64,000 bases of DNA, taken from positions 7,730,001-7,794,000 of the forward strand of contig NZ_JASTWJ010000001.1 of NCBI RefSeq assembly GCF_030499515.1, read 5' to 3'. The notes under the pieces were generated by a model. The model was not told the DNA's origin. It worked only from the letters and a program-made list of their open reading frames with translations, and made no database searches. The stretch is from Streptomyces sp. DT2A-34 (GTDB lineage: Bacteria; Actinomycetota; Actinomycetes; Streptomycetales; Streptomycetaceae). Shown piece after piece: positions 2,460-16,650 of the stretch; position 1 is the stretch's first letter; each line of letters starts with the position of its first letter. The position numbers and the translations under genes were made by a program.

Positions 2460-2506
2460 AGTTGTCGTCCCCGGCAAGATCATGCGCCCCTCCTTTTCGG
2501 GAATGC

Positions 2507-2526: not shown

Positions 2527-2557
2527 TGCTGTACGAACACGAGGAGGAGCGGTCACA

Positions 2558-3496
2558 GTGCTTGATCCGCAGGGTTTGTACGCATGGGAGCCGAAGGGCC
2601 TGGCTGTCGTCGACATGGCGCTTGCCCAGGACTCGGCAGGCCTTGTCATGCTCTACCACTTCGACGGATACATCGACGCGGGTGAGACCGGCGACCAGAT
2701 CGTCGACGGCCTCCTGGACTCGCTGCCCCACCAGCTCGTCGCCCGCTTCGACCACGACCGACTGGTGGACTACCGCGCCCGGCGCCCGCTGCTGACGTTC
2801 AAGCGCGACCGCTGGGCCGCGTACGAGGTGCCCGCCATCGAGGTGCGGCTCGTCCAGGACGCCACCGGGGCGCCCTTCCTGCTGCTGTCCGGGCCCGAGC
2901 CGGACGTGGAGTGGGAGCGCTTCGCCGCGGCCGTCCAGCAGATCGTGGAGCGGCTCGGGGTGCGCCTGTCGGTGAACTTCCACGGCATCCCCATGGGCGT
3001 CCCGCACACCCGCCCGGTCGGCATCACTCCCCACGGCAACCGCACCGACCTCGTCCCCGGCCACCGCAGCCCCTTCGACGAGGCGCAGGTGCCCGGCAGC
3101 GCCGAGTCCCTGATCGAGTACCGGCTCATGGAGGCCGGGCACGAGGTGCTGGGTGTCGCCGCGCACGTCCCGCACTACATCGCCCGCTCCGCCTACCCGG
3201 ACGCGGCCCTGACCGTGCTGGAGGCCGTCACGGCGGCGACCGGCCTGGTCCTGCCGGGCATCGCGCACACCCTGCGCACGGAGGCCCACCGCACGCAGAA
3301 CGAGATCGACCGCCAGATCCGCGAAGGCGACGAGGAGCTCACCAACCTCGTCGAGGGCCTGGAGCATCAGTACGACGCGATCGCCGGCGCCGAGACCCGC
3401 GGCAACATGCTCGCCGAGCCCGTGGACATCCCGTCGGCCGACGAGATCGGACGGGAGTTCGAGCGGTTCCTGGCCGAGCGGGAGGGCGAGAACTGA
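2558..3496 (+). CDS. PAC2 family protein
   Basis: A 312-residue protein of the PAC2 (proteasome assembly chaperone 2) superfamily, conserved in actinobacteria. The fold is recognisable from the N-terminal [13 protein letters not shown] segment, the central [11 protein letters not shown] loop, the HVPHYIA motif and the acidic helical C-terminus. Archaeal relatives help assemble the proteasome. Streptomyces has a 20S proteasome, but a role for this protein there is only inference. It starts with GTG behind the strong ribosome site GAGGAGGAGCGG. coaE follows 57 bases downstream and may be read through. Confidence 0.85.
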
Positions 3497-3553
3497 TCGA
3501 CCGGCCCGCACCTTCCGCACCGTTGCCCAAGCGGAGCGTCTAGGCTTCCCGTC

Positions 3554-4189
3554 ATGCTGAAGGTGGGCCTGACCGGGGGCATCGGAGCCGGTAAGAGCGA
3601 GGTGTCGCGGCTGCTCGTCGAGTGCGGGGCCGTGCTGATCGACGCGGACCGTATCGCACGCGAGGTGGTCGCGCCCGGCACGCCCGGCCTTGCCGCCGTC
3701 GTGGAGGCGTTCGGTGAGGACGTGCTCACCGAGGACGGCAGCCTGGACCGGCCCAAGCTGGGCTCGATCGTCTTCGCCGACCCCGAGCGGCTCGCCGTAC
3801 TGAACTCGATCGTGCACCCCCTCGTCGGCGCCCGCTCCCGCGAGCTCGAAGAGGCCGCCGCCGAGGACGCCGTCGTCGTCCACGACGTCCCGCTCCTCAC
3901 GGAGAACGGCCTCGCCCCGCTGTACGACGTCGTGGTCGTCGTCGACGCCGGTCCCGAGACGCAGCTCGACCGGCTCGTCCGGCTGCGCGGCATGACCGAG
4001 GAGGACGCACGCGCGCGTATGGCCGCGCAGGCGACGCGGGAGAAGCGCCGGGAGATCGCGGACATCGTCATCGACAACGACGTACCGCTGGAGGAGCTTC
4101 AGCGGCGTGTGAAGGACGTATGGGACGAGCTCGTGCGCCGGGCCCACGGGGCACAGGGGAGCCGGCAGCCCCGGTCGCCGCAGGAATAG
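3554..4189 (+). CDS. coaE: Dephospho-CoA kinase
   Basis: Phosphorylates the ribose 3'-OH of dephospho-CoA with ATP, the last step of coenzyme A synthesis, in the cytosol. The 211-residue protein has the P-loop GGIGAGKS at residues 8-15, the [10 protein letters not shown] segment, [12 protein letters not shown] for substrate binding, and the conserved C-terminal [17 protein letters not shown] block with the LID helix. The length matches the single-domain bacterial enzyme; mycobacterial CoaE has an extra C-terminal domain, absent here. It lies downstream of the PAC2 gene on the same strand. Confidence 0.96.
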
Positions 4190-4239
4190 GGGCACGTCGT
4201 TCGCGCGTTGAAGTCCTCCAGCGAGGGAAGGACTTTGCC

Positions 4240-4619
4240 GTGCCCGAGACCAGCGGTTCCACCGGACGTACGCCGGAGACGCATGTCATCGACTTCCGTG
4301 CCGCCGAGCAGCTGCTCGCCGCGCGGGATCCGCGGGGTGCGGTGAAGCTGCTCGACGGGGTCATCGCCGTGCACCCGGAGAACACCGCCGCCCGGCTGCG
4401 CGCGCGCGTGCCTTCTTCGCCGCCGCGCAACTGCGGCCCGCCGAGCTGGAGTTCACCATCGTCCTGGAGCGCGAGCCGGACAACGCCTTCGCGCACTTCG
4501 CGCTCGCCCGGACGTATGAGCGCCAGGGGCGGCCCGACCAGGCCAAGCGTCACTTCCGGCTGGCGGCCGCGCTCGATCCGAACCCGGATTACCTCAAGGC
4601 GGCACGGTTCGAGGCGTGA
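4240..4619 (+). pseudogene. Tetratricopeptide repeat protein, frameshifted
   Basis: Small TPR protein. The first half is read from GTG at 4240 (after GAGGGAAGGA): VPETSGSTGRTPE, then a helical pair ending NTAARL. The second half, AFFAAAQLRPAELEF through LAAALDPNPDYLKAA to a TGA at 4617-4619, is in another frame. The frames meet in CTGCGCGCGCGCGT (4396-4409). Adding one base, or removing one CG unit, restores a continuous protein of about 125 residues with good TPR consensus. It is therefore a recent frameshift, a sequencing error in a CG run, or much less likely a programmed shift. Confidence 0.75.
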
Positions 4620-4653
4620 GCGGCGAGAGGGGGCGGCGGGCCGGCCGGTGCGA

Positions 4654-4950
4654 CTAGGGGTGGCGGTTCTCCGGCGGGGGCGGCCGGTAGGGGCGGCTCT
4701 CGGGCGGGCGGTACGGCGGAATGTCGCGGCCCGGCTGGTAGTGCGGGCCCTGGCGGATGTGCCTGAGGATCATGGCCATGTCGATCGTGATCACCAGCCA
4801 CAGCACTCCGCAGGCCGCCGCCCAGCCGGGGCGGCCGGCGAGCGCGAACGCGGCGGTGCCGAAGACCGCCCAGACCAGGCCCCACACGCACAGCCAGAAG
4901 CGGGCCCGCAGTGCACTGCGCGCTGTCGTCGGCTCACTGCCCGTACGCAT
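4654..4950 (-). CDS. DUF6343-type small membrane protein
   Basis: 98 residues: a short polar N-terminus (MRTGSEPTTARSALRARFWL), two adjacent hydrophobic helices (VWGLVWAVFGTAAFALA and WAAACGVLWLVITIDMAMIL), then a Pro/Arg-rich basic tail that should be cytoplasmic. This matches the streptomycete DUF6343 family of unknown function. ATG at 4950 is preferred because AAGGAG lies 11 bases upstream; in-frame GTG codons just before it sit too close to that site. It is convergent with the TPR gene and divergent from the next gene. Confidence 0.75.
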   Translation of the reverse strand: MRTGSEPTTARSALRARFWLCVWGLVWAVFGTAAFALAGRPGWAAACGVLWLVITIDMAMILRHIRQGPHYQPGRDIPPYRPPESRPYRPPPPENRHP

Positions 4951-5005
4951 CCGGATCACCACTCCTTCTTGAAACGTACTCCTCGTACTCCTCGCAGGGG
5001 GCCCC

Positions 5006-5917
5006 GTGCTGCCGGACACCGATGAACTGGCCGAAGCGCTGCTCGACCTCGGCGTACCCCACGAGGACATCAACGACCTCGTACGGATGGGCCGGCGGGT
5101 CACGGACGACCCCGAGCTACGGCAGATCCTGGAGCGGTCCGTCGGCGAGCTCGTCCAGGGGATGGGGGAGGTCGGCCGCCCGGTCGACCTGCCCGACCTC
5201 GACTGGGCCACGGGCGCCCTGCAGCGCTGCTTCCCCGTGTACGTCTTCCTCGCCGCGCTGCCGTACACGCGCGCGTACCACCGCGAGCGCGGCATCCCGG
5301 CCGACGTCTCCCGGCGCACCCTCGTCGGCCTCGGGCGGAACATGGCCGCGCACCGCAGGCGGCACGGCCGGGCGGGCGTGCAGGCTCCCCGGTGGCTCAC
5401 CCATCACTTCCGCGGCGAGCTGTACCAGCTGGGGCGGTTGCAGTTCGAGCGGGCGCGGCTCGGGCAGCGGACGGGGACGCGGCTCGCGGCGGCCGGCCTC
5501 GACGCGGGTCCGCACTCGCGCTGCCTCAACCTGCACATCCCCGACTTCCACGGCCCGCTGTCCCCGGCCGCCGTCGACCGTTCCCTGGCCCTGGCCCGGG
5601 AGTTCTTCGCCCTCCACTTTCCCGAGGAGCGGTACCGGACGGTGACCTGCCACTCCTGGCTGCTGGACGCGCAGTTCAGGAAGTACCTTCCCGGGGACTC
5701 CAACATCGTCCGGTTCCAGGAGCGTTTCGGCGTCGCCCGCGAGGACATGGAGCCGGCCGACACCGAGCCGGTCCGATTCGTCTTCGGGGACCCGGAGTTG
5801 CCCGTCGAGAGCCTGCCGCGCCGCACGGCCGTGGAGCGGGCGGTCGGGGACCATCTGCGGGCGGGCGGTCACTGGTACATCGGGCACGGGTGGCTGCCGT
5901 TGGGCGGGGGAGGGTGA
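5006..5917 (+). CDS. Acyltransferase-domain protein, GNAT-like fold
   Basis: A 303-residue cytosolic protein. I recognise the actinobacterial family usually called acyltransferase domain-containing protein, with an N-terminal helical domain (LAEALLDLGVPHEDINDLV) and a C-terminal GNAT-like half. The latter has the conserved LNLHIPDFHGPL, VTCHSWLLD and IVRFQERF motifs. The substrate is unknown. It starts with GTG at 5006, a few bases after GCAGGGGGC. The product ends in Gly repeats next to the stop. It stands alone on this strand. Confidence 0.65.
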   Translation: MLPDTDELAEALLDLGVPHEDINDLVRMGRRVTDDPELRQILERSVGELVQGMGEVGRPVDLPDLDWATGALQRCFPVYVFLAALPYTRAYHRERGIPADVSRRTLVGLGRNMAAHRRRHGRAGVQAPRWLTHHFRGELYQLGRLQFERARLGQRTGTRLAAAGLDAGPHSRCLNLHIPDFHGPLSPAAVDRSLALAREFFALHFPEERYRTVTCHSWLLDAQFRKYLPGDSNIVRFQERFGVAREDMEPADTEPVRFVFGDPELPVESLPRRTAVERAVGDHLRAGGHWYIGHGWLPLGGGG

Positions 5918-6003
5918 ATTCGGTTCGTACGGCGATGAGTTCCGGGGCGAGGCCCGGTCTACCTCTGTGACAGCACCACGGACCGCTTCACACTGGAGAC
6001 CCC

Positions 6004-6453
6004 ATGTCCGAGACCACTGCCTCCGCCATCGCCGAGTCCGCGACCCCGCGCGGCCGCCGGGCCCGTATCGCGCTGCGCGGCCTGCAGGTGCTGCTGGCGC
6101 TCTTCATGGGCATCGCGAGTGCCGTGCCCAAGCTGATCGCGCACTCCTCCGCGGCAGACACGTTCGACGAGCTCGGCTGGGGCAGCGCGGGCATGTACAC
6201 CATCGGTGTCCTCGAACTCGCCGGAGCCGTCGCGCTGTTGATCCCGGTGCTGCAGTCGGTGGCGGCCATGGCGTTCATCGGACTGATGGTGGGCGCGTTC
6301 GTCGTCCAGATCGCCGCCTTCGACGCGCAGTACGCCGCGACACCGCTCATCCTGATCGTGCCGTTCGCCCTGATCGCGTGGGCGCGGCGTGACTCCAACG
6401 CGGAGCTGCTGCGGCTGTTGCGACGACGGGCGCGACGTATGCGTGACGCATGA
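6004..6453 (+). CDS. DoxX family membrane protein
   Basis: 149 residues with four predicted transmembrane helices (about 27-47, 63-80, 86-106, 109-126) and the DoxX-like pattern: ALFMGIASAVPKL in helix 1 and GVLELAGAVALLIPVLQ in helix 2. DoxX-like proteins are small inner-membrane proteins linked to redox or thiosulfate metabolism, but the role here is unknown. ATG at 6004 follows CTGGAG. The C-terminus is Arg-rich and cytoplasmic. Convergent with the S4 gene, with a shared stem-loop between them. Confidence 0.8.
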   Translation: MSETTASAIAESATPRGRRARIALRGLQVLLALFMGIASAVPKLIAHSSAADTFDELGWGSAGMYTIGVLELAGAVALLIPVLQSVAAMAFIGLMVGAFVVQIAAFDAQYAATPLILIVPFALIAWARRDSNAELLRLLRRRARRMRDA

Positions 6454-6460
6454 CGGTGGT

Positions 6461-6497
6461 GGCGTCCGGCGCGGGCCTTCCAGGCTTACCGGACGCC
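6461..6497. terminator. Stem-loop between convergent genes
   Basis: GGCGTCCGG (6461-6469) pairs perfectly with CCGGACGCC (6489-6497), between the DoxX and S4 genes. It could end transcription from both sides. Confidence 0.6.
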
Positions 6498-6510
6498 GCC
6501 GCCGTACGGT

Positions 6511-7038
6511 CTACCGGCCGTCCGGACGCTTCGGCCCGCTCATGAGCCCGCGCAGCCGTTCCAGCTCGCGCCGGTCCCGTTTGGTCGGCCGGCCCGTGCC
6601 GCGGTCGCGGATGCCGGCCGGGGCGACGGCCTCGCGCGGCGGGGGAGGGGGCGAGTTGTCGACGTAGCACTGGACCGCCACCGGCGCGCCGACCCGCTTG
6701 CGGATGAGCCGCTTGACGATGACGATCCGCTCCCGGTTCTCCTGCCGCAGCCGTACCTCGTCGCCGACGCGCAGCGAGTGGGCGGGTTTCACGTTCTGGC
6801 CGTTCACGCGCACGTGCCCGCCCTTGCAGGCGGCGGCGCCCAGGGAGCGGGTCTTGACCAGACGTACGGCCCAGATCCAGCTGTCGATCCGCACGGGCTC
6901 GCCGCCGGCCGGGCCGGCGGCCTCGGCGGCGGCCACCGCGGCGGCGATCTTCGCATCGACGGCCGGCTCTGCGTTCGTCGCGTCCGGCTGTCCGTCGGCC
7001 GTGCTGCCGCTCTTCTCCTCGTCGTCCTCGGAAGGCAT
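6511..7038 (-). CDS. S4-domain RNA-binding protein (Hsp15/RqcP-like)
   Basis: 175 residues. An acidic, Ala-rich N-terminal extension (1-47) precedes an S4 domain at about 49-115 (RIDSWIWAVRLVKTRS, GGHVRVNGQNVKPAHSLR). A basic tail ending GTGRPTKRDRRELERLRG completes the protein. The architecture is that of heat-shock protein 15 (HslR/RqcP), which binds the 50S subunit carrying a stalled nascent chain. The ribosome rescue role is inferred from the family. A TAAGGT hexamer about 6 bases before the ATG suggests a leaderless transcript. Divergent from the glycosylase gene. Confidence 0.85.
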   Translation of the reverse strand: MPSEDDEEKSGSTADGQPDATNAEPAVDAKIAAAVAAAEAAGPAGGEPVRIDSWIWAVRLVKTRSLGAAACKGGHVRVNGQNVKPAHSLRVGDEVRLRQENRERIVIVKRLIRKRVGAPVAVQCYVDNSPPPPPREAVAPAGIRDRGTGRPTKRDRRELERLRGLMSGPKRPDGR

Positions 7039-7088
7039 GCCTCGACCTTAGTCCCCGTACGGGGCCAAGTCGGCTTTACGGTGGAGCT

Positions 7089-7802
7089 GTGGATGCCCTC
7101 GCTGATCTGGACCGGCGGATCGCGGGCTGCCGGGCCTGCCCGCGGCTGGTCGACTGGCGGGAGGACGTGGCCCGCACCAAGCGCGCCGCCTTCGCCGACC
7201 AGACGTACTGGGGCCGCCCGGTGCCCGGCTTCGGCCCGCCGGACGCCCGGCTGCTGATCGTCGGGCTCGCGCCGGCGGCGCACGGCGGCAACCGCACCGG
7301 CCGGATGTTCACCGGGGACCGCTCAGGGGACGTGCTGTACCAGGCGCTGTACGACGTGGGCCTCGCCTCGCAGCCCACGTCGGTCGCCGTCGACGACGGC
7401 CTGGAGCTGTACGGCGTCCGCGTCACGGCCCCGGTGCACTGCGCCCCGCCCGCGAACAAACCCACCCCGGGGGAGCGGGAGACCTGCCGGGCCTGGCTCG
7501 TGCAGGAGCTGAGGCTGCTGCGGCCGACGGTGCGGGCGGTCGTCGTGCTCGGCGCCTTCGGCTGGCAGGCCACGCTGCCCGTGCTGGCGGAGGCGGGTTG
7601 GAGCGTGCCCCGGCCGCGGCCCGCGTTCGCGCATGGGGCGCGGGTCGCGCTCGACGGGGTGGGCGGCCTCGACGGCCTCGAACTCTTCGGGTGCTTCCAC
7701 GTCAGCCAGCGCAACACCTTCACCGGCAGGCTGACGCCCGCGATGCTGCGGGAGGTGCTGCGTACGGCGGCGGAGGCGGCGGGGCTGCCGGGGACGCCGT
7801 AG
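7089..7802 (+). CDS. Family 5 uracil-DNA glycosylase (UdgB-like)
   Basis: Removes uracil and other deaminated bases from DNA. In 237 residues it shows four Cys placed for a 4Fe-4S cluster (CRAC at 14-17, then VHC and ETC near 120-137). Motif I is GLAPAAHGGNRTGRMF at 59-74 and the C-terminal motif is HVSQRNT near 212. The Ala in GLAPAAHG, where family 4 has Glu, is the mark of UdgB. It starts with GTG at 7089. A TACGGT hexamer 6 bases upstream suggests a leaderless transcript. I see no DNA-damage promoter here, unlike at uvrA and uvrB. Confidence 0.9.
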   Translation: MDALADLDRRIAGCRACPRLVDWREDVARTKRAAFADQTYWGRPVPGFGPPDARLLIVGLAPAAHGGNRTGRMFTGDRSGDVLYQALYDVGLASQPTSVAVDDGLELYGVRVTAPVHCAPPANKPTPGERETCRAWLVQELRLLRPTVRAVVVLGAFGWQATLPVLAEAGWSVPRPRPAFAHGARVALDGVGGLDGLELFGCFHVSQRNTFTGRLTPAMLREVLRTAAEAAGLPGTP

Positions 7803-7835
7803 GCAGGGGGTGCGCCAGGGCCTGTCCGGCCGGCT

Positions 7836-8510
7836 CTAGGGCAGGTCCTCGGCCGCCTTCTCGCCGAACAGCTGCCGTACCGTCGAGCGGTAGTTGGTCT
7901 GTACGTGGGTGAGTGCGTGCGCGCGGGCGCGGTTCGGGTCTCCGGAGGCGATCGCCTCGTACAACTCCCGGTGCTCCACGAGGAGTTGGCGCCATTCCTC
8001 GTTCCGTCGGGTCATCCAGCGCAGGCGGCCGGCGACCGGCTCCAGGGCCTCGATGAGCAGTTTGTTGCCCGCCATGGCCACGATGCGGTCGTGCAGCCGG
8101 CTGTTGACGTCCGTGATGGTCTCCGCGTCGCCCGCCGCGGTCGCGGTGGCCGCCTGGTCCAGGAGCCGCTCGACCTCGGCGAGACCCTCCGGTGTCGCAC
8201 GGGACGCGGCCAGTCCCGCCGCGTACACCTCCAAGGCCTCGCGCAGTTCGAAGAGTTCCTTGACGTCGGCCGGGGTCAGTCGGCGTACGACCGTGCGGCG
8301 CGCCGACTCGAAGTGGACGAAGCCCTCGGCGACCAGGGCCCGGATCGCCTCGCGGACCGGCACGCGCGAGACCCCGAGGCGCTCGGCCAGCTCCCGCTCG
8401 ACGAGCCGGTCGCCGGGCCGGAGGCGACCCACGATGATGTCCTGCCGCAGGGTCGCCAGGACGCGTTCCCGTACCGCGCCGAGGGGTTCGATCTTCGTCG
8501 GGGAGCTCAT
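7836..8510 (-). CDS. GntR-family regulator, FCD type
   Basis: 224 residues. Winged helix-turn-helix at about 12-75 (LRPGDRLVERELAERLGVS, VPVREAIRALVAEG), then the all-helical FCD ligand domain at 85-205. The latter has the metal-binding pattern LHDRIVAMAGN and HRELYEAIASGD. FCD regulators usually repress a neighbouring catabolic or transport operon and release on binding an organic acid. Here the divergent neighbour is a nucleobase/hydantoin permease and racemase operon. A perfect palindrome fitting the FCD operator consensus lies between them, so local control is very likely. Confidence 0.92.
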   Translation of the reverse strand: MSSPTKIEPLGAVRERVLATLRQDIIVGRLRPGDRLVERELAERLGVSRVPVREAIRALVAEGFVHFESARRTVVRRLTPADVKELFELREALEVYAAGLAASRATPEGLAEVERLLDQAATATAAGDAETITDVNSRLHDRIVAMAGNKLLIEALEPVAGRLRWMTRRNEEWRQLLVEHRELYEAIASGDPNRARAHALTHVQTNYRSTVRQLFGEKAAEDLP

Positions 8511-8601
8511 GGGGCCATTTTGGCCGACTCGGGGTGTGTTTTACGGAGCGTTAACAAGAGCGACATCGGTCGGAACTGTTGACGGGAGGACTATGTGCGC
8601 A

Positions 8602-8617
8602 GTTTGGTATACCAAAC
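8602..8617. promoter_or_regulatory. Operator of the FCD GntR regulator
   Basis: GTTTGGTATACCAAAC is a perfect 16-bp palindrome between the divergent regulator and permease genes, 63 bases before the permease GTG. Its core TGGTATACCA fits the FadR/FCD operator pattern TnGTnnnACnA (symmetrical form). Confidence 0.85.
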
Positions 8618-8679
8618 ACCCCCCCCGCGAGCAGTCCCCTCCATAAGCAGTCCTCCGTCCCCCGGCTCCTGGAGGCCCC

Positions 8680-10179
8680 GTGTCCCTCGCCGACCGTGCC
8701 GAAGTCACCGGCACACCAGCGTTCGTCCCCGATCCCAGGCTCACCAACGAAGACCTCGCGCCCGCCGGCAAGCGCAACTGGAAGGTCTTCGACCTCTTCG
8801 CGCTGTGGATGTCCGACGTCCACAACCTCGGCAACTACACGTTCGCGGCCGGCCTGCTGGTCCTCGGCATGAATGTGTGGCAGGTCTTCACCTCCCTGCT
8901 CGTCGGCTTCGTGCTCATCTACATCGGCATGAACTGGATGGGGAAGATCGGCCAGCGCCACGGCGTCCCGTTCCCCGTGGTCAGCCGCATCAGCTTCGGC
9001 GTCTGGGGTGCCAACATCCCGGCGCTGATCAGGGCCGTGATCGCCATCATGTGGTACGGCATCCAGACCTATCTCGCGTCCGTCGCCGTGAACGTGATGC
9101 TGCTGGCGGCCTGGCCCGGCCTGGAGTCCTGGACGCACAGCTCCTTCCTGGGCCTGCACGCGCTCGGCTGGGTCTCCTTCCTCTCCCTCTGGCTCATCCA
9201 GGCGTTGATCATCAGCCAGGGCATGGAGTCGGTGCGGAAGTTCCAGGACTTCTGCGGTCCGGCGATCTGGGTCGTGATGATCGCGCTGGCGGTCTGGATC
9301 TTCGCCAAGGCGGGCTGGACGATCTCGCTCACGAGCACCCCGCACCCGGTCTCCGTCGGCGAGCAGTGGCGGCAGTGGTTCGGCGCGATCGGCCTGATCC
9401 TCGCCACGTACGGCACGCTGATGCTCAACTTCTGCGACTTCTCGCGCTTCGCGCCCGACTACCCGACCGTCAAGCGCGGCAACTTCTGGGGTCTGCCCAT
9501 CAACTCGACGGCGTTCGTGGTGGTTTCGGTGATCGTCACGGCCGGTTCGCTGGAGGTGTTCGGCGAGGCCATCACGGATCCGGCGGAGCTGGTGGCGAAG
9601 GTCGGCAACACCTGGATCCTGGTCCTGGCCGCCCTGACGTTCGCCATCGCCACCATGGGCGTCAACATCGTCGCCAACTTCGTCTCACCGGCGTACGACC
9701 TGGCCAACGTCTGGCCGCAGAAGATCACCTTCAAGGTCGGCGGCATGATCAGCACGGTCGCGGCGCTCGTCGTGACCCCCTGGAACCTCTTCTCGAACCC
9801 GACGGTCGTGAACTACTTCCTGGGCGGCCTGGGCGCCTTCCTGGGCCCGCTGTTCGGCGTGATCATGGTCGACTACTACCTGGTCAAGCGCGGCCGCGTG
9901 GACGTGGACGAGCTGTTCTCCGCCGAGCCGGGCTCGCGCTACTACTACCGCAACGGCGTCAACCCCAAGGCGCTGTGGGCGTTCCTGCCGGCGGCCGGTG
10001 TCGCGGCGGTGCTGGCGCTGGTGAAGACGTTCAGCGATGTGGCGCCGTACTCGTGGTTCATCGGGACGGCGATGGCGGCGGGCCTGTACCTGGTGCTGTG
10101 CCGTGGTGAGCGCGCCGAGTCCGCCACCGACTCCGCCGGCGCGACCGATGCCGCCGAGTCCAGGGCGCAGGAGGTCTGA
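8680..10179 (+). CDS. NCS1 nucleobase/hydantoin:cation symporter
   Basis: 499-residue polytopic membrane protein of the NCS1 family, which imports cytosine, uracil, allantoin or hydantoins with H+ or Na+. Twelve hydrophobic helices are expected. Visible family marks are WKVFDLFALWMSDVHNLGNYT, RISFGVWGANIPAL in helix 3 and FCDFSRFAPDYPTVKRG in the middle. The racemase gene starts 5 bases after its stop, which favours a hydantoin or allantoin substrate. GTG start behind GGAGG. Regulated in all likelihood by the divergent GntR protein. Confidence 0.93.
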   Translation: MSLADRAEVTGTPAFVPDPRLTNEDLAPAGKRNWKVFDLFALWMSDVHNLGNYTFAAGLLVLGMNVWQVFTSLLVGFVLIYIGMNWMGKIGQRHGVPFPVVSRISFGVWGANIPALIRAVIAIMWYGIQTYLASVAVNVMLLAAWPGLESWTHSSFLGLHALGWVSFLSLWLIQALIISQGMESVRKFQDFCGPAIWVVMIALAVWIFAKAGWTISLTSTPHPVSVGEQWRQWFGAIGLILATYGTLMLNFCDFSRFAPDYPTVKRGNFWGLPINSTAFVVVSVIVTAGSLEVFGEAITDPAELVAKVGNTWILVLAALTFAIATMGVNIVANFVSPAYDLANVWPQKITFKVGGMISTVAALVVTPWNLFSNPTVVNYFLGGLGAFLGPLFGVIMVDYYLVKRGRVDVDELFSAEPGSRYYYRNGVNPKALWAFLPAAGVAAVLALVKTFSDVAPYSWFIGTAMAAGLYLVLCRGERAESATDSAGATDAAESRAQEV

Positions 10180-10184
10180 CGGAC

Positions 10185-10904
10185 GTGCGGATCGTCGTCA
10201 CCAACTGCAACACCACGCAGGAGATGACCGAGGAGATCGTACGAGGTGCCCGGGCCGCGGCAGGCCCGGGCACCACCGTGCTCGGGCTGACCCCCGCGTG
10301 GGGGCCCGAGTCCGCGGAGGGCTGGCTCGACAGCTACCTCTCGGCGGCGGCGGTCATGGACGCGCTGCGGACGTACGAGGGCCCCGCGTACGACGCGGTC
10401 GTCATGGCCGGCTTCGGGGAGCACGGGCGTGAGGGCGTCCGGGAACTGGTCGACGTACCGGTCGTCGACATCACGGAGGCGGCCGCGCATCTGGCCTGCC
10501 TGCTCGGACGGCGGTACGGCGTGGTGACCACGCTGGAGCGGTCGTGCGGGCAGATCGAGGACAGCCTCGATACCGCAGGGGTGGGCCGCAACTGCGTCGC
10601 CGTGATCGGCACCGGGCTCGGGGTGCTGGAGTTGGAGGACGGCGAGCGCACGGAGTCCGCCTTTCTGGCAGCCGCCGAACGCGCGCGGGACGCGGGTGCC
10701 GAGGTCCTGGTGCTGGGGTGCGCCGGGATGACCGGGTTGCAGCGGACCGTGGGGGAGAAGCTGGGGGTTCCGGTGGTCGACGGGGTGGGAGCGGCCGTCA
10801 AACTCGCCGAGTCGCTGGTCGCGTTGGGGCTGACGACGAGCCGGGCCGGGAGCTACGCGAAGCCGTTGCCGAAGCGGCGGACCTGGGGGTCGCCTCAAGG
10901 GTGA
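10185..10904 (+). CDS. Hydantoin/Asp-Glu racemase family protein
   Basis: 239 residues, aspartate/glutamate/hydantoin racemase fold: VVTNCNTTQEMTEEI at the N-terminus and VLVLGCAGMTGL near 174-185. Hydantoin racemases interconvert D- and L-5-substituted hydantoins using two cysteines, about positions 76 and 181 in characterised enzymes. Here the second is present (Cys179), but the first position reads AGFGEHG with Gly76 in place of Cys. It may therefore have altered activity. Translationally coupled to the permease (5-base gap, GGAGG inside the permease end). Its 3' end overlaps that of the convergent GNAT gene by 10 bases. Confidence 0.8.
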   Translation: MRIVVTNCNTTQEMTEEIVRGARAAAGPGTTVLGLTPAWGPESAEGWLDSYLSAAAVMDALRTYEGPAYDAVVMAGFGEHGREGVRELVDVPVVDITEAAAHLACLLGRRYGVVTTLERSCGQIEDSLDTAGVGRNCVAVIGTGLGVLELEDGERTESAFLAAAERARDAGAEVLVLGCAGMTGLQRTVGEKLGVPVVDGVGAAVKLAESLVALGLTTSRAGSYAKPLPKRRTWGSPQG

Positions 10905-11383
10905 CGCGGACGTGGGTGAGCCGGATGGGGGTGCCCCGGACGCCAGACGTACCGCACGTCCGGCTCGCGCTCCTCGTTGCCGCTGCCGTCCGTGTACTCG
11001 ACGGCGACGAAGCCGTGCCGCTCGTAGAAACGGTGGGCGGGCTTGTTGACCTGGAAGGTCCACAGGGTCAGTCCGTGCGGTCTGAGCTGTTTGGCGAGGT
11101 CCACGAAGCGGTCGCCGATGCCGCAGCCGCGCCGGTCGGGGTCGAGATAGAGCTGGGAGAGCTGGTCGCCGTCGAGCACCATGAGACCGACGATGCGGTC
11201 GGCGGCCTCGGCCACCCAGGTCTCCCGCAGCAGGACCACCACCTCCCGGAAGTACGTCCGCACGTCGTCGTCGGAGCGCGGCCGGACGACCGTCGGCAGG
11301 GCGGCGGCGAACGACCGCAGCCAGACGTCGGCGGCGGCACCGGCGTCGGTCGCAGTGGCGCGGCGGAGGGCGACACGGCTCAC
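10895..11383 (-). CDS. GNAT family N-acetyltransferase
   Basis: 162 residues with the acetyl-CoA binding segment LYLDPDRRGCGIGDRFV (motif A, Q/R-x-x-G-x-G) and the C-terminal NKPAHRFYERHGFVAVEYT typical of GNAT enzymes. Substrate unknown. I place the start at GTG 11383, which overlaps the RidA stop as GTGA, so the two are translationally coupled. A longer in-frame extension would run inside ridA and lacks similarity. Confidence 0.85.
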   Translation of the reverse strand: MSRVALRRATATDAGAAADVWLRSFAAALPTVVRPRSDDDVRTYFREVVVLLRETWVAEAADRIVGLMVLDGDQLSQLYLDPDRRGCGIGDRFVDLAKQLRPHGLTLWTFQVNKPAHRFYERHGFVAVEYTDGSGNEEREPDVRYVWRPGHPHPAHPRPRHP

Positions 11384-11924: not shown

Positions 11925-12297
11925 TCACCGCGTTCGCCTTCCCTGACCGCATACGCAGCGCACCGCCGGCTGCCAGGTCCAGTGCGTGTCCAGGCGGAAC
12001 ACATGCAGCCCTTCGGCACGGCAGGCGTCGTACACCATGGCCAGTGCGGCGGAGGCGACTCCTTGCCGACGGGCGACGGGCGACGGGATGGACGTAGAGC
12101 GACGTGACACGCACCGCGCCCACGCCCACGGGCCAGGTGTCGACGGTGATGGTCCCCACGGGCCCGCTCCCGCTACGGCTTCCCGGGGAACGGACCCAGT
12201 ACCGCCTGCGATAGTCGCCGTCGCGCCGGCGCTCACGCCCGTCTGAGCCCGGTCGGACCGATATGTCATCCTGGCGAAGGACCACGCTGCTGTTCAC
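11925..12297 (-). pseudogene. GNAT acetyltransferase remnant
   Basis: One GNAT-like protein is split over two frames. GTG at 12297 opens VNSSVVLRQDDISVRPG and runs through GTITVDTWPVGVGAVRVTSL to YVHPVARR. The continuation RQGVASAALAMVYDACRAEG then LHVFRLDTHWTWQPAVR is in another frame. The break coincides with a 7-bp tandem duplication (GGGCGAC twice, 12071-12084). After QPAVR the expected C-terminal strand is lost and a stop follows. The start overlaps the 3' end of the next gene. A non-functional remnant. Confidence 0.7.
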
Positions 12298-12958
12298 GCA
12301 CCCGACGTTCGCACTCCTGTGCAAGGTTCGGGTACGCCTTGGAAATGGCCGCGTAGACACGGTGCCAGAGCAACTCCTCGGCTGCGGCACGCCCCGTGCT
12401 CCCGTACAACTCACCGAGGATCTCGTGGTGCCGGGTCAGCCGGTGGCGTAGGTAGTCGACCTTCCACCGGTCGAGCGCGGCGGGCTCGGCACTCTCGACG
12501 GTGGCCGGCTCCGCCACGCGCCCCCGCCCTCCCTGCCACCGGCCGGACGTCCGCTTCTCCTCTTGGCGGTTCCGGTGTTCGACAGCCAGCGCCGCCAGCC
12601 TGTCCGGAGCCAGCTGCGGCACGTCCATCGGCTCCGCAGCGATCCGCGCCAGCACCTCCCGCCGCCTGCGCGCAGCGGCAGCCCGCGCCGCACCCGACCG
12701 CCGCGCGGCGGCGGCCGCGATGGCCCTGAACTCCTCACTGCGCTCAGCGGCCTCGATCCGCTCCATCCGGTAAAGCCGGGTCCGCGGGGCGGACCGGAAG
12801 ATCGGATGGCCCGCCAGCATGTCGGGCTCACCGAGCAGTTGCCGCACCATGCTCGGAGTCCAGCCCCGGGCCCGAAGCCCCGCTGCCGAGAGGTGCGGGT
12901 ACCTCGGCTGCGGCTCCTGACGGCCATGGCCCACGTGGTCCTGCTCGTGCGTCGTCAT
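12266..12958 (-). CDS. Hypothetical protein, Ala/Arg-rich helical
   Basis: 230 residues, not assigned to a family. The N-terminal segment YPHLSAAGLRARGWTPSMVR followed by QLLGEPDMLA resembles short DNA- or partner-binding modules seen at the front of streptomycete hypothetical proteins. The middle is a long Ala/Arg-rich helical, possibly coiled-coil stretch (residues 50-110). The C-terminal WKVDYLRHRLTRHHEILGEL segment is well structured. I choose ATG 12958 because GGGGGAAG lies just upstream; in-frame ATGs at 12979 and 13000 are possible. A DNA-damage-type promoter with one mismatch lies upstream (13000-13022). Confidence 0.6.
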   Translation of the reverse strand: MTTHEQDHVGHGRQEPQPRYPHLSAAGLRARGWTPSMVRQLLGEPDMLAGHPIFRSAPRTRLYRMERIEAAERSEEFRAIAAAAARRSGAARAAAARRRREVLARIAAEPMDVPQLAPDRLAALAVEHRNRQEEKRTSGRWQGGRGRVAEPATVESAEPAALDRWKVDYLRHRLTRHHEILGELYGSTGRAAAEELLWHRVYAAISKAYPNLAQECERRVREQQRGPSPG

Positions 12959-12999
12959 CAATGCTTCCCCCGTCGCCATTACGCTGAGTGACGACTTCA

Positions 13000-13022
13000 T
13001 TGATAACGCGCACCACTGACAA
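13000..13022 (-). promoter_or_regulatory. Near-match to the RecA-NDp damage promoter
   Basis: On the minus strand TTGTCAGTG (13014-13022) is followed after 8 bases by TATCAA (13000-13005). The consensus is TTGTCRGTG-N8-TAnnnT, so only the final T is missing. It lies 41 bases before the start used for the hypothetical gene. Confidence 0.5.
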
Positions 13023-13101: not shown

Positions 13102-13731
13102 TCAGGACCCCTCTGACCTGCGGGGGGGGGTGCCCCGATCTGCCCCCGTCTCGGGAGAACGCGGCGACCTCGGAGCCCGCGGCGCAGGAAGGTCGATCAG
13201 ATCGCTGACGTTCGCCACCTCCTGCAAGGTCCGCGCCAGCGACACCAGCGTCTCCCGTACGGCGGCGATCTCGCGGCGCAGGGTCTCGGCATGCTCCCAT
13301 TCGCGTTCGTGGACCACGGGATCGCGCCCCGCCGGCCGCTGGGCCTCGTACGCGGTCAGGCGGGGATGCCACTGGGCGAGGAGCGGACGCAGCACGCGGT
13401 TGAGGACGGTGACGGCCAGGACGCCGAAGCTGACGTGGCCGGGAGCCAGGGGCGGGGCGACGTCGGGGCCGTAGCGGCGGAGGATCTCACGTGTGGTGTT
13501 GAAGAAGGTGTAGAGGGAGGAGAGCGCCTCGCGCAGAAAGCCCTCGTCGGGGTCGAGCTCCTCGACCGACACGCGCGTGACCAGCTCCAGATAGAGCTCC
13601 CAGGCCGCGCTGCGCTCCGCGTCGGCCGGCTCCCACATGCCGGATATCTCGCCGACGAACGGAATCGTCAGCTTGGCCGTGATCTGCGACGGACCGCTCG
13701 GTCGACGTCGCCTGCGCTGCCTGTGTCCCAT
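13102..13731 (-). CDS. Conserved protein of a TIR-associated family (domain X)
   Basis: 209 residues, not in a family I can name. A basic N-terminus (GHRQRRRRRP) precedes a conserved strand-turn, KLTIPFVGEISGMWEPADA. A helical domain follows at about 35-175 (ELVTRVSVEELDP, LREALSSLYTFFNTTREIL, WHPRLTAYEA, AETLRREIAAVRETLVSLA). The same helical domain forms the C-terminus of the divergent TIR-NTPase: ELVTR, LREALxSL, RPxxxxWHPRLxAYEA and the paired HExxW helix all align. I infer a partner or regulator of that protein. The C-terminus is uncertain because it is read through a run of nine G (13122-13130). Confidence 0.75.
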   Translation of the reverse strand: MGHRQRRRRRPSGPSQITAKLTIPFVGEISGMWEPADAERSAAWELYLELVTRVSVEELDPDEGFLREALSSLYTFFNTTREILRRYGPDVAPPLAPGHVSFGVLAVTVLNRVLRPLLAQWHPRLTAYEAQRPAGRDPVVHEREWEHAETLRREIAAVRETLVSLARTLQEVANVSDLIDLPAPRAPRSPRSPETGADRGTPPRRSEGS

Positions 13732-13755
13732 GATCGCCCTCCCCGGTACCCACAG

Positions 13756-13762
13756 TAGGGTA
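13756..13762. promoter_or_regulatory. Overlapping -10 elements of the TIR gene pair
   Basis: TAGGGT (13756-13761, plus strand) and TACCCT (13757-13762, minus strand) share five base pairs inside a 38-base intergenic gap. On the plus strand the hexamer lies 8 bases before the GTG, typical of a leaderless transcript. This implies mutually exclusive or jointly regulated transcription of the divergent genes. Confidence 0.45.
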
Positions 13763-13769
13763 AGTCGCC

Positions 13770-15743
13770 GTGTGGGACGTCTTCCTCAGCTACAGCCGCG
13801 GTGACGTGGAGCGGGTCCGTCCGCTCGCGCGGGCGCTGCGCGACGGCGGGCTCGAGGTGTTCACGGACGAGACCGGCGTCGAGTCCTTCGCCGGCATCAG
13901 CGCCACCATCCGGCGCGAACTGGGCCGTTCCAAGGCGCTGCTGGCCTTCTACTCCACCGGCTACCCCGAGCGCGAGGCCTGCCAGTGGGAGCTGACCACC
14001 GCCTATCTGGCGGGACTTGGGGAGGGCGATCCGCGGCGCCGGGTCATGGTGGTCAACCCGGAGCGGACGGCGGACCACATCCAGCCCGTGGAACTGCGTG
14101 ACGCCAGACACGCCGCGCCCGACGACCTCCCCGCCCTCGTGGCCGACGTACGCGCGCACGTGGCCCGCCTCGACGGCCCGATGACGATCGCGGAACCCGG
14201 CGTACGGCACTGGCTGCTGGGCACCCCACGCCCCCGCCCCGACTTCCTGGGCCGCCTCTTCGAGCTCTGGCAGGTGCACTCCGCCCTGCACGCCCACGCC
14301 GCACCGCTCGTCACCGGCCGCGCCGCAGCGCACGCCGTGCAGATCCGCGGCATGGCGGGCATCGGCAAGAGCCTGCTGGCCCAGGAGTACGCCCTGCGCT
14401 TCGAGGCGGCGTACCCCGGCGGCGTGTACTGGGTGGACGGGGAGGCGTACGAGGATTCCGTGCACGCCCTCGGCGACGCGGGCGCAGGTGTCGGCGGGAC
14501 AGGTGTCGCCGGGACAGGTGTCGGCGGGCCAGGTGGCCTCTTCGCCTACTTCGACGCCATCGGCGAACCGTTCCTGTGGATCGTCGACGCCGCCCCCGCC
14601 GACCGGCTCCCCGCCCGCGACATCGCGGCGATGGCGGCACCGCACCCCCTCGGCCACACCCTCTTCACCCTGCGCAGCCGCGCCTACGACACCCTCGGCA
14701 CCCCGGTCGACCTGGGGCCGCTCGACGCGCCCCACGCGCGCGTGCTGGCCGGTGACGAGGCACTCGCCGACGCGGTCGGCGGCCATCCCCTCGCGCTGGG
14801 CCTGCTGGGCCGTGCGGTCCGCGCCGGCCACCACCCCGGCGCGCTCTACGACCGGCTGCACGCCCGGGGCCGCTCCCTCCTCGACGCCCTCGCCGACGAG
14901 GACGTCACGGGCGCCGTCGTACGGGACGTGGACACGGCGGACGCCGCCGACGTCCTGCGCTGCGCCGCCGCCCTCCACCCGCTGCCCCTCAGCACCGACG
15001 ACGCGGCCCACGTCCTCGCCGCCGCCGACCGCGTCCCGCAGATCGTCGCCCGCCGGCGCGCCGCCAACGGCGTCCGTGAACTGCGCGCCCGCAGCCTGCT
15101 GACCCCGGCGGCCGACGAACGCTGGTCCCTGCACCCCGTGACCCAGCACGCCTGGCACCACCACGACCCGGCCCCCGCCCGCACGGAGGCCCTCCGCCAC
15201 GCCGCCCTGCGCACCCTGTGCGGCCGCCGCGACGCGCGTGACCCGGTTACGCTGGCCTTCCCCGGTACCCGGAGGGAGGCACCCATGGCAGCGCCCAGCG
15301 AGTCGGAACGGATGGCCGCCTACGACATCCAGATCGAGTTGGTCACCCGGATCGGGGTGCAGGAGCTGGCACCGGGGACGGGGAGCCTGCGGGAGGCGCT
15401 CACCTCCCTGAAGTCGCTGATCGACTTCACGCGCGCGACCCTGCACACATACAGCGTGAGCCTGGAACACGGCTCGGAAACCGGCGCGCCGACGGTCCAG
15501 AACCTCGCGTACGCCCTGATCAACGAGACGATTCGGCCCTTCACCAGCACCTGGCACCCTCGCCTTGCCGCCTACGAGGCCCGCTGCCCGGCGGACGTGG
15601 CCCCGCTCGACCACGAGGCGGCCTGGCCGCAGGCGGAGGCGATGCGGGCCGAACTGGCCGCGCTGCGCGAGCCGTTGGTGCGGATCGCGGAGGGGCTGGG
15701 CGGCATCTCCGGGGCGGACTTCGGGGTGGCGGCCACGGGGTGA
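13770..15743 (+). CDS. TIR-domain STAND-type NTPase with C-terminal domain X
   Basis: 657 residues in three parts. Residues 1-135 are a TIR domain: FLSYSRGD at 5-12, FTDETGVESF at 31-40, and CQWEL with Glu74 at the position of the NAD-cleaving glutamate. Residues about 165-500 are an NB-ARC-like NTPase with Walker A GMAGIGKS (194-201), a Walker B-like FLWIVDAA and a winged-helix segment. Residues 506-657 are the same helical domain X as in the divergent gene. TIR-STAND proteins in bacteria commonly act in immunity by depleting NAD. That role is inference here. Unusual features are a Gly-rich 15-bp repeat in the NTPase and a well-placed internal start at 15285. Confidence 0.85.
   Translation: MWDVFLSYSRGDVERVRPLARALRDGGLEVFTDETGVESFAGISATIRRELGRSKALLAFYSTGYPEREACQWELTTAYLAGLGEGDPRRRVMVVNPERTADHIQPVELRDARHAAPDDLPALVADVRAHVARLDGPMTIAEPGVRHWLLGTPRPRPDFLGRLFELWQVHSALHAHAAPLVTGRAAAHAVQIRGMAGIGKSLLAQEYALRFEAAYPGGVYWVDGEAYEDSVHALGDAGAGVGGTGVAGTGVGGPGGLFAYFDAIGEPFLWIVDAAPADRLPARDIAAMAAPHPLGHTLFTLRSRAYDTLGTPVDLGPLDAPHARVLAGDEALADAVGGHPLALGLLGRAVRAGHHPGALYDRLHARGRSLLDALADEDVTGAVVRDVDTADAADVLRCAAALHPLPLSTDDAAHVLAAADRVPQIVARRRAANGVRELRARSLLTPAADERWSLHPVTQHAWHHHDPAPARTEALRHAALRTLCGRRDARDPVTLAFPGTRREAPMAAPSESERMAAYDIQIELVTRIGVQELAPGTGSLREALTSLKSLIDFTRATLHTYSVSLEHGSETGAPTVQNLAYALINETIRPFTSTWHPRLAAYEARCPADVAPLDHEAAWPQAEAMRAELAALREPLVRIAEGLGGISGADFGVAATG
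14485..14529 (+). repeat. 15-bp tandem repeat inside the TIR-NTPase gene
   Basis: Three units of CAGGTGTCGGCGGGA (14485-14499, 14500-14514, 14515-14529, one or two changes each) plus a partial fourth. They encode a Gly/Val-rich insert at about residues 239-254, between Walker A and Walker B. Being a multiple of three, copy changes keep the frame. Confidence 0.9.
15271..15287 (+). promoter_or_regulatory. Internal ribosome site and ATG within the TIR-NTPase gene
   Basis: GGAGGGAGG (15271-15279) is spaced 5 bases from an in-frame ATG (15285). A TTACGCT hexamer lies about 23 bases further upstream. The 152-residue product from this ATG would be exactly domain X. Confidence 0.5.
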
Positions 15744-15813: not shown

Positions 15814-16650
15814 ATGCCCTGCCTCCCCGACCCCGCCTCCCTTCCTGACCCCGCCTCCCTTCCTGACCCTGCCTCCCTCCCCGGCACCGCCGCCCTCTCC
15901 GACTCGGCCTTCCTCGACGCCACCGCCGATCGCCTCGCCGCCCTCCCCACCGTCCGGGCCGTCGCTCTCGGCGGCTCGCGAGCCCAGGGCACCCACATGC
16001 CCGACAGCGACTGGGACCTGGCGATCTACTACCGGGGCGCCTTCGATCCAGCGGACCTGCGCGCGGTCGGCTGGGAGGGCGAGGTCTCCGAGGTCGGCGG
16101 CTGGGGCGGCGGTGTCTTCAACGGGGGTGCGTGGCTGACCGTCGACGGGCGGCGCGTCGACGTCCATTACCGCGATCTCGACGTCGTGGAGCGGGAGTTG
16201 GCCGAGGCGGAGGAGGGGCGGTTCCGGGTGGAGCCGTTGCTGTTCCATCTCGCGGGGATTCCCAGCTACTTGGTCGTCGCTGAGCTGGCGATCAACCAGG
16301 TGCTTCGGGGTGCGCTGCCCCGGCCGGCCGGCTATCCGCGGAAGTTGCGTCACACGGCGCGCGAGCGTTGGTACGGCACCGCCCGGGCCACCCTCGGGTA
16401 CGCGCAGGCCAACCATGTCCCGGCGGGCCGCCGCACCGAGGTCGCGGGGGCGATCGCCACGGCTGCCGTGCAGACGGGGCATGCGGTGCTGGCGGGGCGG
16501 GGGGAGTGGGTGACGAATGAGAAGCGGTTGCTGGAGCGGGCGGGGCTGCGGGGCGTTGACGGTGTCATCGGGTCGCTGGGTGGGCGTCCCGACCAGTTGA
16601 GCGGGGCGGTCGCGGAAGCGGAGGCGCTGTTCGAGCGGGCTATGGGCTGA
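15814..16650 (+). CDS. Nucleotidyltransferase-domain protein
   Basis: 278 residues. The catalytic core has the Pol-beta type motif GGSRAQGTHMPDSDWDLAIY, and a third acidic residue in RRVDVHYRD. The C-terminal half (from about residue 150) is helical, as in DUF4037/AadA-like enzymes, some of which inactivate aminoglycosides and others of which are MNT toxin or antitoxin components. The substrate is unknown. The N-terminus carries SLPDPA repeats from an 18-bp tandem repeat. TACGCT 7 bases before ATG 15814 suggests a leaderless transcript. It lies 70 bases after the TIR gene on the same strand. Confidence 0.8.
   Translation: MPCLPDPASLPDPASLPDPASLPGTAALSDSAFLDATADRLAALPTVRAVALGGSRAQGTHMPDSDWDLAIYYRGAFDPADLRAVGWEGEVSEVGGWGGGVFNGGAWLTVDGRRVDVHYRDLDVVERELAEAEEGRFRVEPLLFHLAGIPSYLVVAELAINQVLRGALPRPAGYPRKLRHTARERWYGTARATLGYAQANHVPAGRRTEVAGAIATAAVQTGHAVLAGRGEWVTNEKRLLERAGLRGVDGVIGSLGGRPDQLSGAVAEAEALFERAMG
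15835..15888 (+). repeat. 18-bp tandem repeat at the nucleotidyltransferase N-terminus
   Basis: Units GCCTCCCTTCCTGACCCC at 15835-15852 and 15853-15870, with degenerate copies on each side. They encode SLPDPA hexapeptides in front of the folded domain. Confidence 0.85.

What the first reader, a model, noticed from the sequence alone, without database searches (positions are those of the whole stretch)
13102..15743. Divergent TIR-NTPase and domain-X gene pair, a candidate undescribed immune or conflict module
Seen: a 657-residue TIR + NB-ARC-like NTPase protein ends in a helical domain that is paralogous to nearly the whole product of the divergent gene (shared ELVTR, LREALxSL, WHPRLxAYEA and the paired HE..W helix). 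Known: bacterial TIR-STAND proteins can sense invaders and deplete NAD; Glu74 sits where the catalytic Glu is expected. Inferred: domain X is a homotypic sensor or adaptor, with the free copy acting as partner, trigger or inhibitor. The free copy has an extra N-terminal KLTIPFVGEISG segment that the fused copy lacks.
Basis: partly seen in the sequence, partly recalled or inferred. Interest (0 to 1): 0.75.

Follow-up and report, generated by a model that had tools for sequence, protein, structure and literature searches.

The report
Unnamed partner domain of TIR proteins
A Streptomyces gene pair joins a TIR receptor built like plant resistance proteins to a small unnamed helical protein whose relatives often sit beside TIR immune genes in other bacteria, some archaea, plasmids and viral contigs, which points to a testable missing part of TIR-based immunity.

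Summary
The pair is real. Window 13770-15743 (+) encodes TIR + NB-ARC + helical domain X; 13102-13731 (-) encodes a free X. The X copies are 42% identical over 143 aa. The genes start 38 bp apart, and 37-39 bp apart in the 32 related loci measured. The window's free X matches no Pfam, NCBIfam, PADLOC or PHROGs family.

In 90 loci grouped into 23 X clusters (60% identity), 15 have a TIR domain within 1 kb (below 0.1 expected at measured densities); 5 have none. In 11 of the 15 the TIR gene carries no X: ThsB-type, TIR-TPR, TIR-NB-ARC-TPR, TIR-nSTAND1. X is also fused to transmembrane segments and patatin-like phospholipases. The four viral contigs found with X each have an adjacent TIR gene. 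A residue signature (R53, R81, W121, mostly N111/R115/H122) persists across these contexts.

So a purely homotypic X-X adaptor does not cover the family. Best mechanism, inferred only: X reads the TIR state or its NAD-derived product and switches what it is attached to; free X tunes the TIR. No function was tested. HEPN membership found no support.

The parts
13102..13731 (-). free domain-X protein, 209 aa (ATG start, GGGGAGGG ribosome-binding site)
13633..13683 (-). N-terminal beta-hairpin (residues 17-33, includes KLTIPFVGEISG), absent from the fused copy
   Evidence: AlphaFold2 model; alignments
13213..13623 (-). domain X, four long helices (residues 37-173)
   Evidence: AlphaFold2 model (mean pLDDT 88.1, pTM 0.77)
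13366..13389 (-). signature R115-P..W-H122 of free X (R-x6-H)
13732..13769 (.). 38-bp head-to-head spacer; conserved CAGTAGGGTAAG just upstream of the TIR gene; TAGGGT and TACTGT are -10-like by eye only (the consensus promoter scan found none)
13770..15743 (+). TIR-NB-ARC(STAND)-X protein, 657 aa (GTG start)
13779..14105 (+). TIR domain (residues 4-112)
   Evidence: Pfam TIR_2 E 2.7e-13
13989..13991 (+). Glu74, at the expected catalytic position (CQWEL), invariant in the 55 sequences aligned
   Evidence: the catalytic role is recalled from TIR NADases, not tested
14226..15230 (+). NB-ARC/STAND NTPase and following region (residues 153-487); P-loop at about 14346-14372
   Evidence: NCBIfam FxSxx_TPR partial match E 3e-12, 45.9 bits against a cut-off of 300; Foldseek; invariant G194, G197, G199, K200
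15285..15713 (+). fused domain X (residues 506-648), in the C-terminal position
15534..15557 (+). signature R589-P-F..W-H596 of the fused X

Best explanation
The pair is a TIR-based immune module: a TNL-like TIR-NB-ARC protein with domain X where other STAND proteins carry their sensor repeats, plus a free X protein made from the same 38-bp divergent region. Domain X is a recurrent partner of TIR proteins. Most likely mechanism: X is the receiving half of TIR signalling. Its conserved Arg/Asn/Trp/His patch binds the NAD-derived product of the TIR domain, or the active TIR itself. It passes that state to whatever X is fused to: a membrane segment (TM-X), a membrane phospholipase (patatin-X), or an NB-ARC switch (here). 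Free X, which has the stronger ribosome-binding site and no effector of its own, competes for the same ligand and so sets the threshold of the neighbouring TIR. Shown: architecture, conservation, TIR neighbourhood, fusions, presence on viral contigs and plasmids. Inferred: NAD cleavage, ligand binding, threshold role, abortive infection.
For: TIR association: 75 of 90 loci hold a TIR by a local profile; in 23 clusters at 60% identity 18 representatives hold one and 15 have it within 1 kb of X, against 0.05-0.08 expected from TIR_2 densities measured in 9 actinobacterial genomes and 0.33 even at an assumed 5 per Mb. In 11 of those 15 the TIR gene has no X. The 4 viral contigs found with X each have an adjacent TIR gene, above Pfam cut-off in each (ThsB_TIR in L109 and L110, TIR_2 and ThsB_TIR in L111, TIR_2 in L103). 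Pfam confirms partners of many architectures. In CBASS and Thoeris (recalled), patatin, transmembrane and TIR domains are effectors attached to a signal-binding domain; X is fused to all three kinds. X-patatin in Mesorhizobium lies among at least three ThsB_TIR genes, as a Thoeris effector would. The polar signature is kept in solo, TIR-STAND and patatin contexts alike. Free X has the longer SD match in the 32 measurable loci (5-6 bases against 3-4).
Against: No ligand, activity or phage phenotype was measured. Free X beside a small TIR gene without any fused effector (L111; in L110 and L094 a nuclease-domain gene lies next to the module) does not fit a simple receptor-effector scheme unless another gene is the effector. 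Most of the conserved polar residues of helices 2-4 lie on a stripe 68-124 degrees from the hydrophobic face, which suits a protein interface as well as a pocket. TM-X of the window genome and of G315 lacks R115, and the second free copies (X1) mostly lack N111, R115 and H122. 5 of 23 clusters have no TIR in the locus. Free X is kept in loci whose TIR-STAND gene is lost or decayed (whole in 8 of 10), which a mere threshold-setter would not need.
Confidence: 0.36

Rival explanations
1. Homotypic adaptor: free X and fused X bind each other, as effector-associated domains are proposed to do, so free X triggers or caps oligomers of TIR-STAND-X.
For: Free and fused copies are homologous and divergently paired. 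Second, degenerate free copies (X1) occur beside TIR-STAND-X in two Amycolatopsis, a Nocardia and a Herbihabitans locus. The EAD principle is published (PMC7159879, passages read).
Against: In 11 of 15 clusters the nearby TIR gene has no X. Free X proteins 60-67% identical to the window's lie beside TIR-WD40 proteins in other Streptomyces (L064 above both Pfam cut-offs, L059 with TIR_2 below cut-off). The conserved Arg/Asn/His set is unusual for a mere adaptor. No EAD family appears in the Pfam scans of X.
Confidence: 0.2
2. Antitoxin-like inhibitor: free X binds the neighbouring TIR domain directly and holds its NADase off until infection removes X; in TIR-STAND-X the fused copy does this in cis.
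For: The TIR domain is the element that the partners share. X and TIR genes overlap or nearly touch in L083, L098, L099, L092, L109, L110 and L111. Free X has the longer SD match. TIR-STAND is lost or decayed with X kept whole in 8 of 40 window-type loci, as with orphan antitoxins; these loci were found through X, so the reverse loss could not be seen.
Against: Fusion of X to patatin and to transmembrane segments looks like an input domain, not an inhibitor. X stays under purifying selection without its TIR-STAND (mean dN/dS 0.21 against 0.14 in 15 pairs each; pairs not independent, losses may be recent). The reverse search (TIR-STAND-X without free X) got no answer.
Confidence: 0.22
3. X is itself an enzyme, a HEPN-like RNase effector activated in the TIR pathway (R115-x6-H122 plus E49-x3-R53 resemble the HEPN motifs Rx4-6H and Ex3[KR]).
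For: Motif spacing lies inside the published HEPN range (PMC3710099, passages); four-helix model; three listed UniRef entries are named SAV-6107-like HEPN, on what basis is not shown (P0007, P0051, P0055); a two-gene TIR + X module (L111) would need an effector.
Against: No HEPN family in the Pfam scan of 23 members at E up to 1. The HEPN_SAV_6107 search of the own genome finds two other genes, not X. hhalign probability 0.3 of 100 (the target alignment has only two sequences). The residue after R is Pro, not N/D/H, and the motif lies within helix 3 of the model, not at its end. No HEPN structure is named in the listed fold matches, which does not exclude it.
Confidence: 0.08
4. Neighbourhood by chance or housekeeping: X is a general cytosolic protein that happens to lie in TIR-rich islands.
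For: 5 of 23 clusters show no TIR in the locus (for example L091, between DnaJ-like and sigma-factor-like genes, named by eye, in a Bacillota MAG). X is patchy: 2 of 396 genomes drawn from the phylum had a match, one of them the own genome (only 8 candidates per genome scored).
Against: 15 clusters with a TIR within 1 kb against below 0.1 expected. In Amycolatopsis arida and Herbihabitans the only TIR_2 match found in the genome is the one beside X (genomes picked because a TIR was near). Direct fusion with TIR-STAND; pairs on plasmids and viral contigs.
Confidence: 0.03

Closest known systems
TIR-NLR (TIR-STAND-TPR) defence protein of P4-like satellites (Rousset et al. 2022, PMC9122126; passages and section 10 read)
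   Same: N-terminal TIR, central STAND NTPase; the published protein protects E. coli from phages as a single gene
   Different: C-terminal TPRs there, domain X here; a single-gene system there, a divergent free X gene here
Plant TNL receptors (RPP1, Roq1) and Apaf-1/CED-4
   Same: TIR-NB-ARC order; Foldseek E 1e-11 to RPP1 (whole-chain TM-scores are low, 0.3-0.4)
   Different: no LRR; 657 aa; X in the C-terminal position; bacterial
Thoeris (ThsB TIR + ThsA effector)
   Same: ThsB_TIR genes beside X in Methanophagales, rhizobia, Vibrio and three viral contigs; X fused to membrane modules as in an effector
   Different: no SIR2-SLOG or macro ThsA among the proteins I scanned there; X matches no known ThsA receptor domain; signal untested
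Effector-associated domains (EADs) of conflict systems (PMC7159879, passages)
   Same: small helical domain present free and fused to effectors
   Different: no EAD family in the Pfam scans; partners share TIR, mostly not X; conserved polar signature
SLATT 2TM effectors (PMC7159879, passages)
   Same: two-TM protein beside TIR or SLOG genes (L013, L097)
   Different: no SLATT family in the Pfam scan of the L013 protein
HEPN domains (PMC3710099, passages)
   Same: four helices, R-x6-H and E-x3-R spacing
   Different: no profile match, Pro after R, motif placed differently

Membership tests
TIR-STAND / TNL-like receptors (bacterial NLR) | TIR domain | tested here: met
   Pfam TIR_2 50.9 bits, cut-off 28
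TIR-STAND / TNL-like receptors (bacterial NLR) | NB-ARC/STAND NTPase with P-loop | tested here: met
   sequence models below cut-off (AAA_16 15.6, NB-ARC 11.8 bits), but the model matches RPP1, Apaf-1 and CED-4 and P-loop residues are invariant in the 55 sequences aligned
TIR-STAND / TNL-like receptors (bacterial NLR) | C-terminal repeat sensor (TPR, WD40 or LRR) | tested here: not met
   domain X instead; no repeat family in the Pfam scan at E up to 1
TIR-STAND / TNL-like receptors (bacterial NLR) | NAD cleavage and phage resistance | not testable with these tools
   needs the bench
Thoeris | ThsB-type TIR enzyme | tested here: not met
   the window TIR matches TIR_2, ThsB_TIR is not listed at E up to 1, PADLOC ThsB only E 0.047. 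Met by partner TIRs of other X loci (PF08937 over cut-off in L094, L095, L101, L102, L104, L109, L110, L111)
Thoeris | ThsA effector with a domain that binds the TIR product | tested here: inconclusive
   X-patatin and TM-X occupy that place in gene order; binding unknown
HEPN | profile match to a HEPN family | tested here: not met
   0 of 23 members at E up to 1 in Pfam; own-genome HEPN_SAV_6107 search misses X; hhalign probability 0.3 (thin target)
HEPN | HEPN fold | tested here: inconclusive
   no HEPN named among the listed Foldseek or VIA rows; a missing row does not exclude it
HEPN | Rx4-6H motif with polar residue after R | tested here: inconclusive
   R-x6-H is present, but Pro follows R
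EAD (effector-associated domains) | match to a named EAD model | tested here: not met
   no EAD family listed for X in the Pfam scans
EAD (effector-associated domains) | homotypic partners in the same locus or genome | tested here: inconclusive
   met in the window pair; in 11 of 15 clusters the nearby TIR gene has no X
Toxin-antitoxin | toxic protein neutralised by its partner | not testable with these tools
   gene order and TIR-STAND losses fit; no assay

The most novel reading that the evidence does not exclude
Domain X is a previously unnamed receptor of TIR-made NAD-derived signals, with a fold unlike the SLOG or macro receptors of Thoeris. X with a TIR gene is then a broad immune class found in bacteria, archaea, plasmids and viral contigs, with membrane (TM-X), phospholipase (patatin-X) and NLR-type (TIR-NB-ARC-X) outputs, and the free X is its tuning subunit.
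Probability: 0.28. Interest if true: 0.88.

Novelty: new variant of a known kind. Interest (0 to 1): 0.72.

Why it matters
TIR enzymes are central to immunity in bacteria, plants and animals, but how many bacterial TIR proteins are regulated or read out is open. An unnamed domain that sits beside TIR genes in several phyla, is fused to three kinds of effector-like module and lies next to ThsB-type TIR genes on viral contigs gives a concrete handle. The smallest modules (one TIR gene plus one gene of about 160 codons) can be cloned and tested at once. If X binds TIR products it would be a new receptor class; if it inhibits TIR directly it would be a new control principle.

Tried and rejected

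Polar core: I expected the invariant polar residues to face the bundle core; the helical-wheel estimate put most of them on an edge stripe, so a pocket is not shown. dN/dS of X with and without TIR-STAND was too confounded by shared ancestry to decide. TIR-STAND-X on viral contigs: none found. In print: searched the open library; none of the listings or passages I read described X, but the library lacks most subscription papers and the 2015 nucleotide-network paper was not held. PMC8195603 was seen in passages, PMC13174449 as abstract and outline.

TIR profile: the first local TIR profile contained two seeds translated on the wrong strand (L001, L002); it was rebuilt and only that version is counted. 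9 of its 15 seeds lie beside an X gene or belong to a TIR-STAND-X protein, so Pfam was used as the independent check. It missed the TIR of the L105 WD40 protein, which Pfam finds (38.6 bits). L059 TIR_2 scored 24.9 bits, below its cut-off of 28. The TIR densities behind the expectation come from 9 actinobacterial genomes, eight of them picked because a TIR lies near X.

Rows left out: 5 of 149 X hits in L016-L105 were not in the residue counts (two in L079, remnants in L043 and L049, and the Vibrio X of L102). The tree used 87 of the 149 copies. Two further Streptomyces longwoodensis plasmids with X were not fetched.

Reverse question (TIR-STAND-X without free X): not answered, because the genus-wide genome search never replied; sampling through X cannot show it.

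Full report
The observation. Both genes are present as described. The 657-aa plus-strand protein carries TIR_2 at residues 4-112 (E 2.7e-13). The minus-strand protein aligns with its residues 506-648 at 42% identity. Glu74 and the P-loop residues are invariant in the 55 sequences aligned. AlphaFold2 gives mean pLDDT 87.1 for the long protein, and Foldseek ranks the plant TNL RPP1 first (E 1e-11), with NRC resistosomes, Apaf-1 and CED-4 following. So it is a compact TIR-NB-ARC protein with domain X in the C-terminal place where other such proteins carry repeats.

Domain X. The free protein is modelled as a beta-hairpin (17-33) followed by four long helices (pLDDT 88.1, pTM 0.77). It matches no Pfam family at E up to 1 and nothing in NCBIfam, PADLOC or PHROGs at E up to 0.1. 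Of 23 members, a few have scattered weak Pfam hits that I take for chance. No fold match reached E 0.001. Yet the family is large: 473 proteins match the single sequence and 3581 match a profile among 7996 candidates scored. It is patchy: 2 of 396 genomes drawn from the phylum match, one of them the own genome (8 candidates scored per genome). Free X proteins from Methanophagales, Bacteroidota, Bacillota, Armatimonadetes and Eremiobacterota MAGs are 47-57% identical to the window copy.

The TIR link. I examined 90 loci: 80 from species genomes (the best 80 of 138 confirmed), 9 from plasmids (of 11 records with a match) and one viral contig. A local TIR profile finds a TIR in 75 of 90. In 23 clusters at 60% identity, 18 representatives hold a TIR and 15 have it within 1 kb of X; L084, L086, L088, L091 and L100 have none. 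In 4 of the 15 the TIR gene also carries X; in 11 it does not. TIR_2 counts in nine X-bearing genomes are 1 to 13 (eight picked because a TIR lies near X). At these densities 0.05-0.08 clusters would be expected within 1 kb, and 0.33 at an assumed 5 per Mb. Viral-contig scans with three X alignments end at the same four contigs, and each has a TIR gene directly beside X, over Pfam cut-off in each. Two tblastn searches of annotated phage records with free X proteins and one with the TM-X protein of L109 found none.

The partners differ. Pfam, over cut-off unless noted, shows TIR-TPR (L083; L099 with TPRs below cut-off), TIR-NB-ARC-TPR (L090), TIR with TPRs (L081, L093), TIR-nSTAND1-FGE (L092), TIR-WD40 (L064, L098, L105; L059 with TIR below cut-off), plain TIR (L094), TIR in longer proteins (L096, annotated GUN4; L103), ThsB_TIR (L094, L095, L101, L102, three genes in L104, L109, L110, L111), and TIR with SLOG cluster 2 (L089; separate genes in L105). 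X is also fused: to two predicted transmembrane segments in the own genome, in G315 and on a S. longwoodensis plasmid, with one predicted on the S. cynarae plasmid; to three in a viral contig (hydropathy only); and to Patatin domains in three rhizobia (L104 35.8 and L105 29.6 bits over the cut-off of 27.7, L101 25.3 below it). In the own genome a second locus (L013) has a TIR-SLOG gene (TIR_2 24.4 bits, below cut-off), a 2TM-X gene, an IS110 transposase and a second TIR-STAND-X gene.

Conservation. On 149 X copies (5 further hits left out), R53 is kept in 87/88 solo, 51/51 TIR-STAND, 5/5 second-copy, 2/2 TM and 3/3 patatin copies; W121 in all; R81 in all but one solo and one second copy; R115 in 87/88, 51/51, 2/5, 0/2 and 3/3; H122 in 87/88, 51/51, 1/5, 2/2 and 3/3. 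One 'solo' row is the split fusion of L048, and the TM-X proteins of L097 and L098 count as solo there. So the patch looks like a shared functional site in most contexts, and the second free copies are degenerate. A helical-wheel estimate places most of it on an edge stripe, not in the core, so pocket and interface remain open.

History and expression. In a tree of 87 copies the fused X domains form one group (support 82/91, not starred) that also holds the split L048 copy; the second copies group beside them, and the free copies lie elsewhere (several long branches). Of 40 window-type loci, 30 have an intact TIR-STAND gene, 6 a decayed or split one and 4 none. In these 10 the free X is whole in 8; L052 lacks the hairpin and L079 is truncated. 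They were found through X, so the reverse loss could not be seen. Free X has a 5-6 base SD match and TIR-STAND 3-4 in the 32 measurable loci, with a 37-39 bp spacer.

Interpretation. Because the TIR domain is the element that the partners share, X most likely acts on TIR or on what TIR makes. Its fusion to effector-like modules favours an input role. I commit to the receptor/threshold model at 0.36, with direct inhibition (0.22) and homotypic adaptor (0.20) close behind. For comparison, a single-gene TIR-STAND-TPR protein and a three-gene TIR + transmembrane locus of phage AC1 protect E. coli (PMC9122126, passages and section 10); whether the AC1 proteins contain X was not checked.

Novelty. 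TIR-STAND immunity is known. What I did not find in the libraries and papers searched is domain X and its tie to TIR across phyla. I therefore file it as a new variant of a known kind.

Noticed in passing
own genome L013 (G000:C1:2272000-2291900): Second X locus: TIR-SLOG(LD_cluster2) gene, 2TM-X gene, IS110 transposase, second TIR-STAND-X gene.
   Followed up: partly
L110 7617-8720 and L094 2-286: A nuclease-domain gene (Pfam SNase, 54 and 58 bits) lies next to the ThsB_TIR + X genes in a viral contig and in a Methanophagales contig: a possible third component.
   Followed up: partly
L104 (Mesorhizobium plasmid) 3865-10384: X-patatin amid ThsB_TIR genes, with a confirmed Nmad2 gene beside one TIR and a similar gene beside another; uracil-DNA glycosylase and NTP pyrophosphohydrolase annotated nearby.
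   Followed up: partly
L096 (Calothrix plasmid) 281-11246: Two X genes and seven TIR-profile hits, including two short proteins with two TIR hits each.
   Followed up: partly
L049 5708-5932 (-): An internal deletion of the TIR-STAND gene has joined the TIR start to the end of X, while the free X gene beside it stays intact.
   Followed up: no
window 15850-16650 (+): Nucleotidyltransferase-domain gene (NTP_transf_2) just downstream of TIR-STAND-X; similar genes lie near X in L023, L037 and L049.
   Followed up: no
window 12266-13000 (-): 244-aa gene with no convincing Pfam match; similar genes lie next to free X in L034, L049 and L052.
   Followed up: no
L091 5989-6507: Free X in a Bacillota MAG between housekeeping-like genes (named by eye) with no TIR found in the locus, an exception to the TIR rule.
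   Followed up: no
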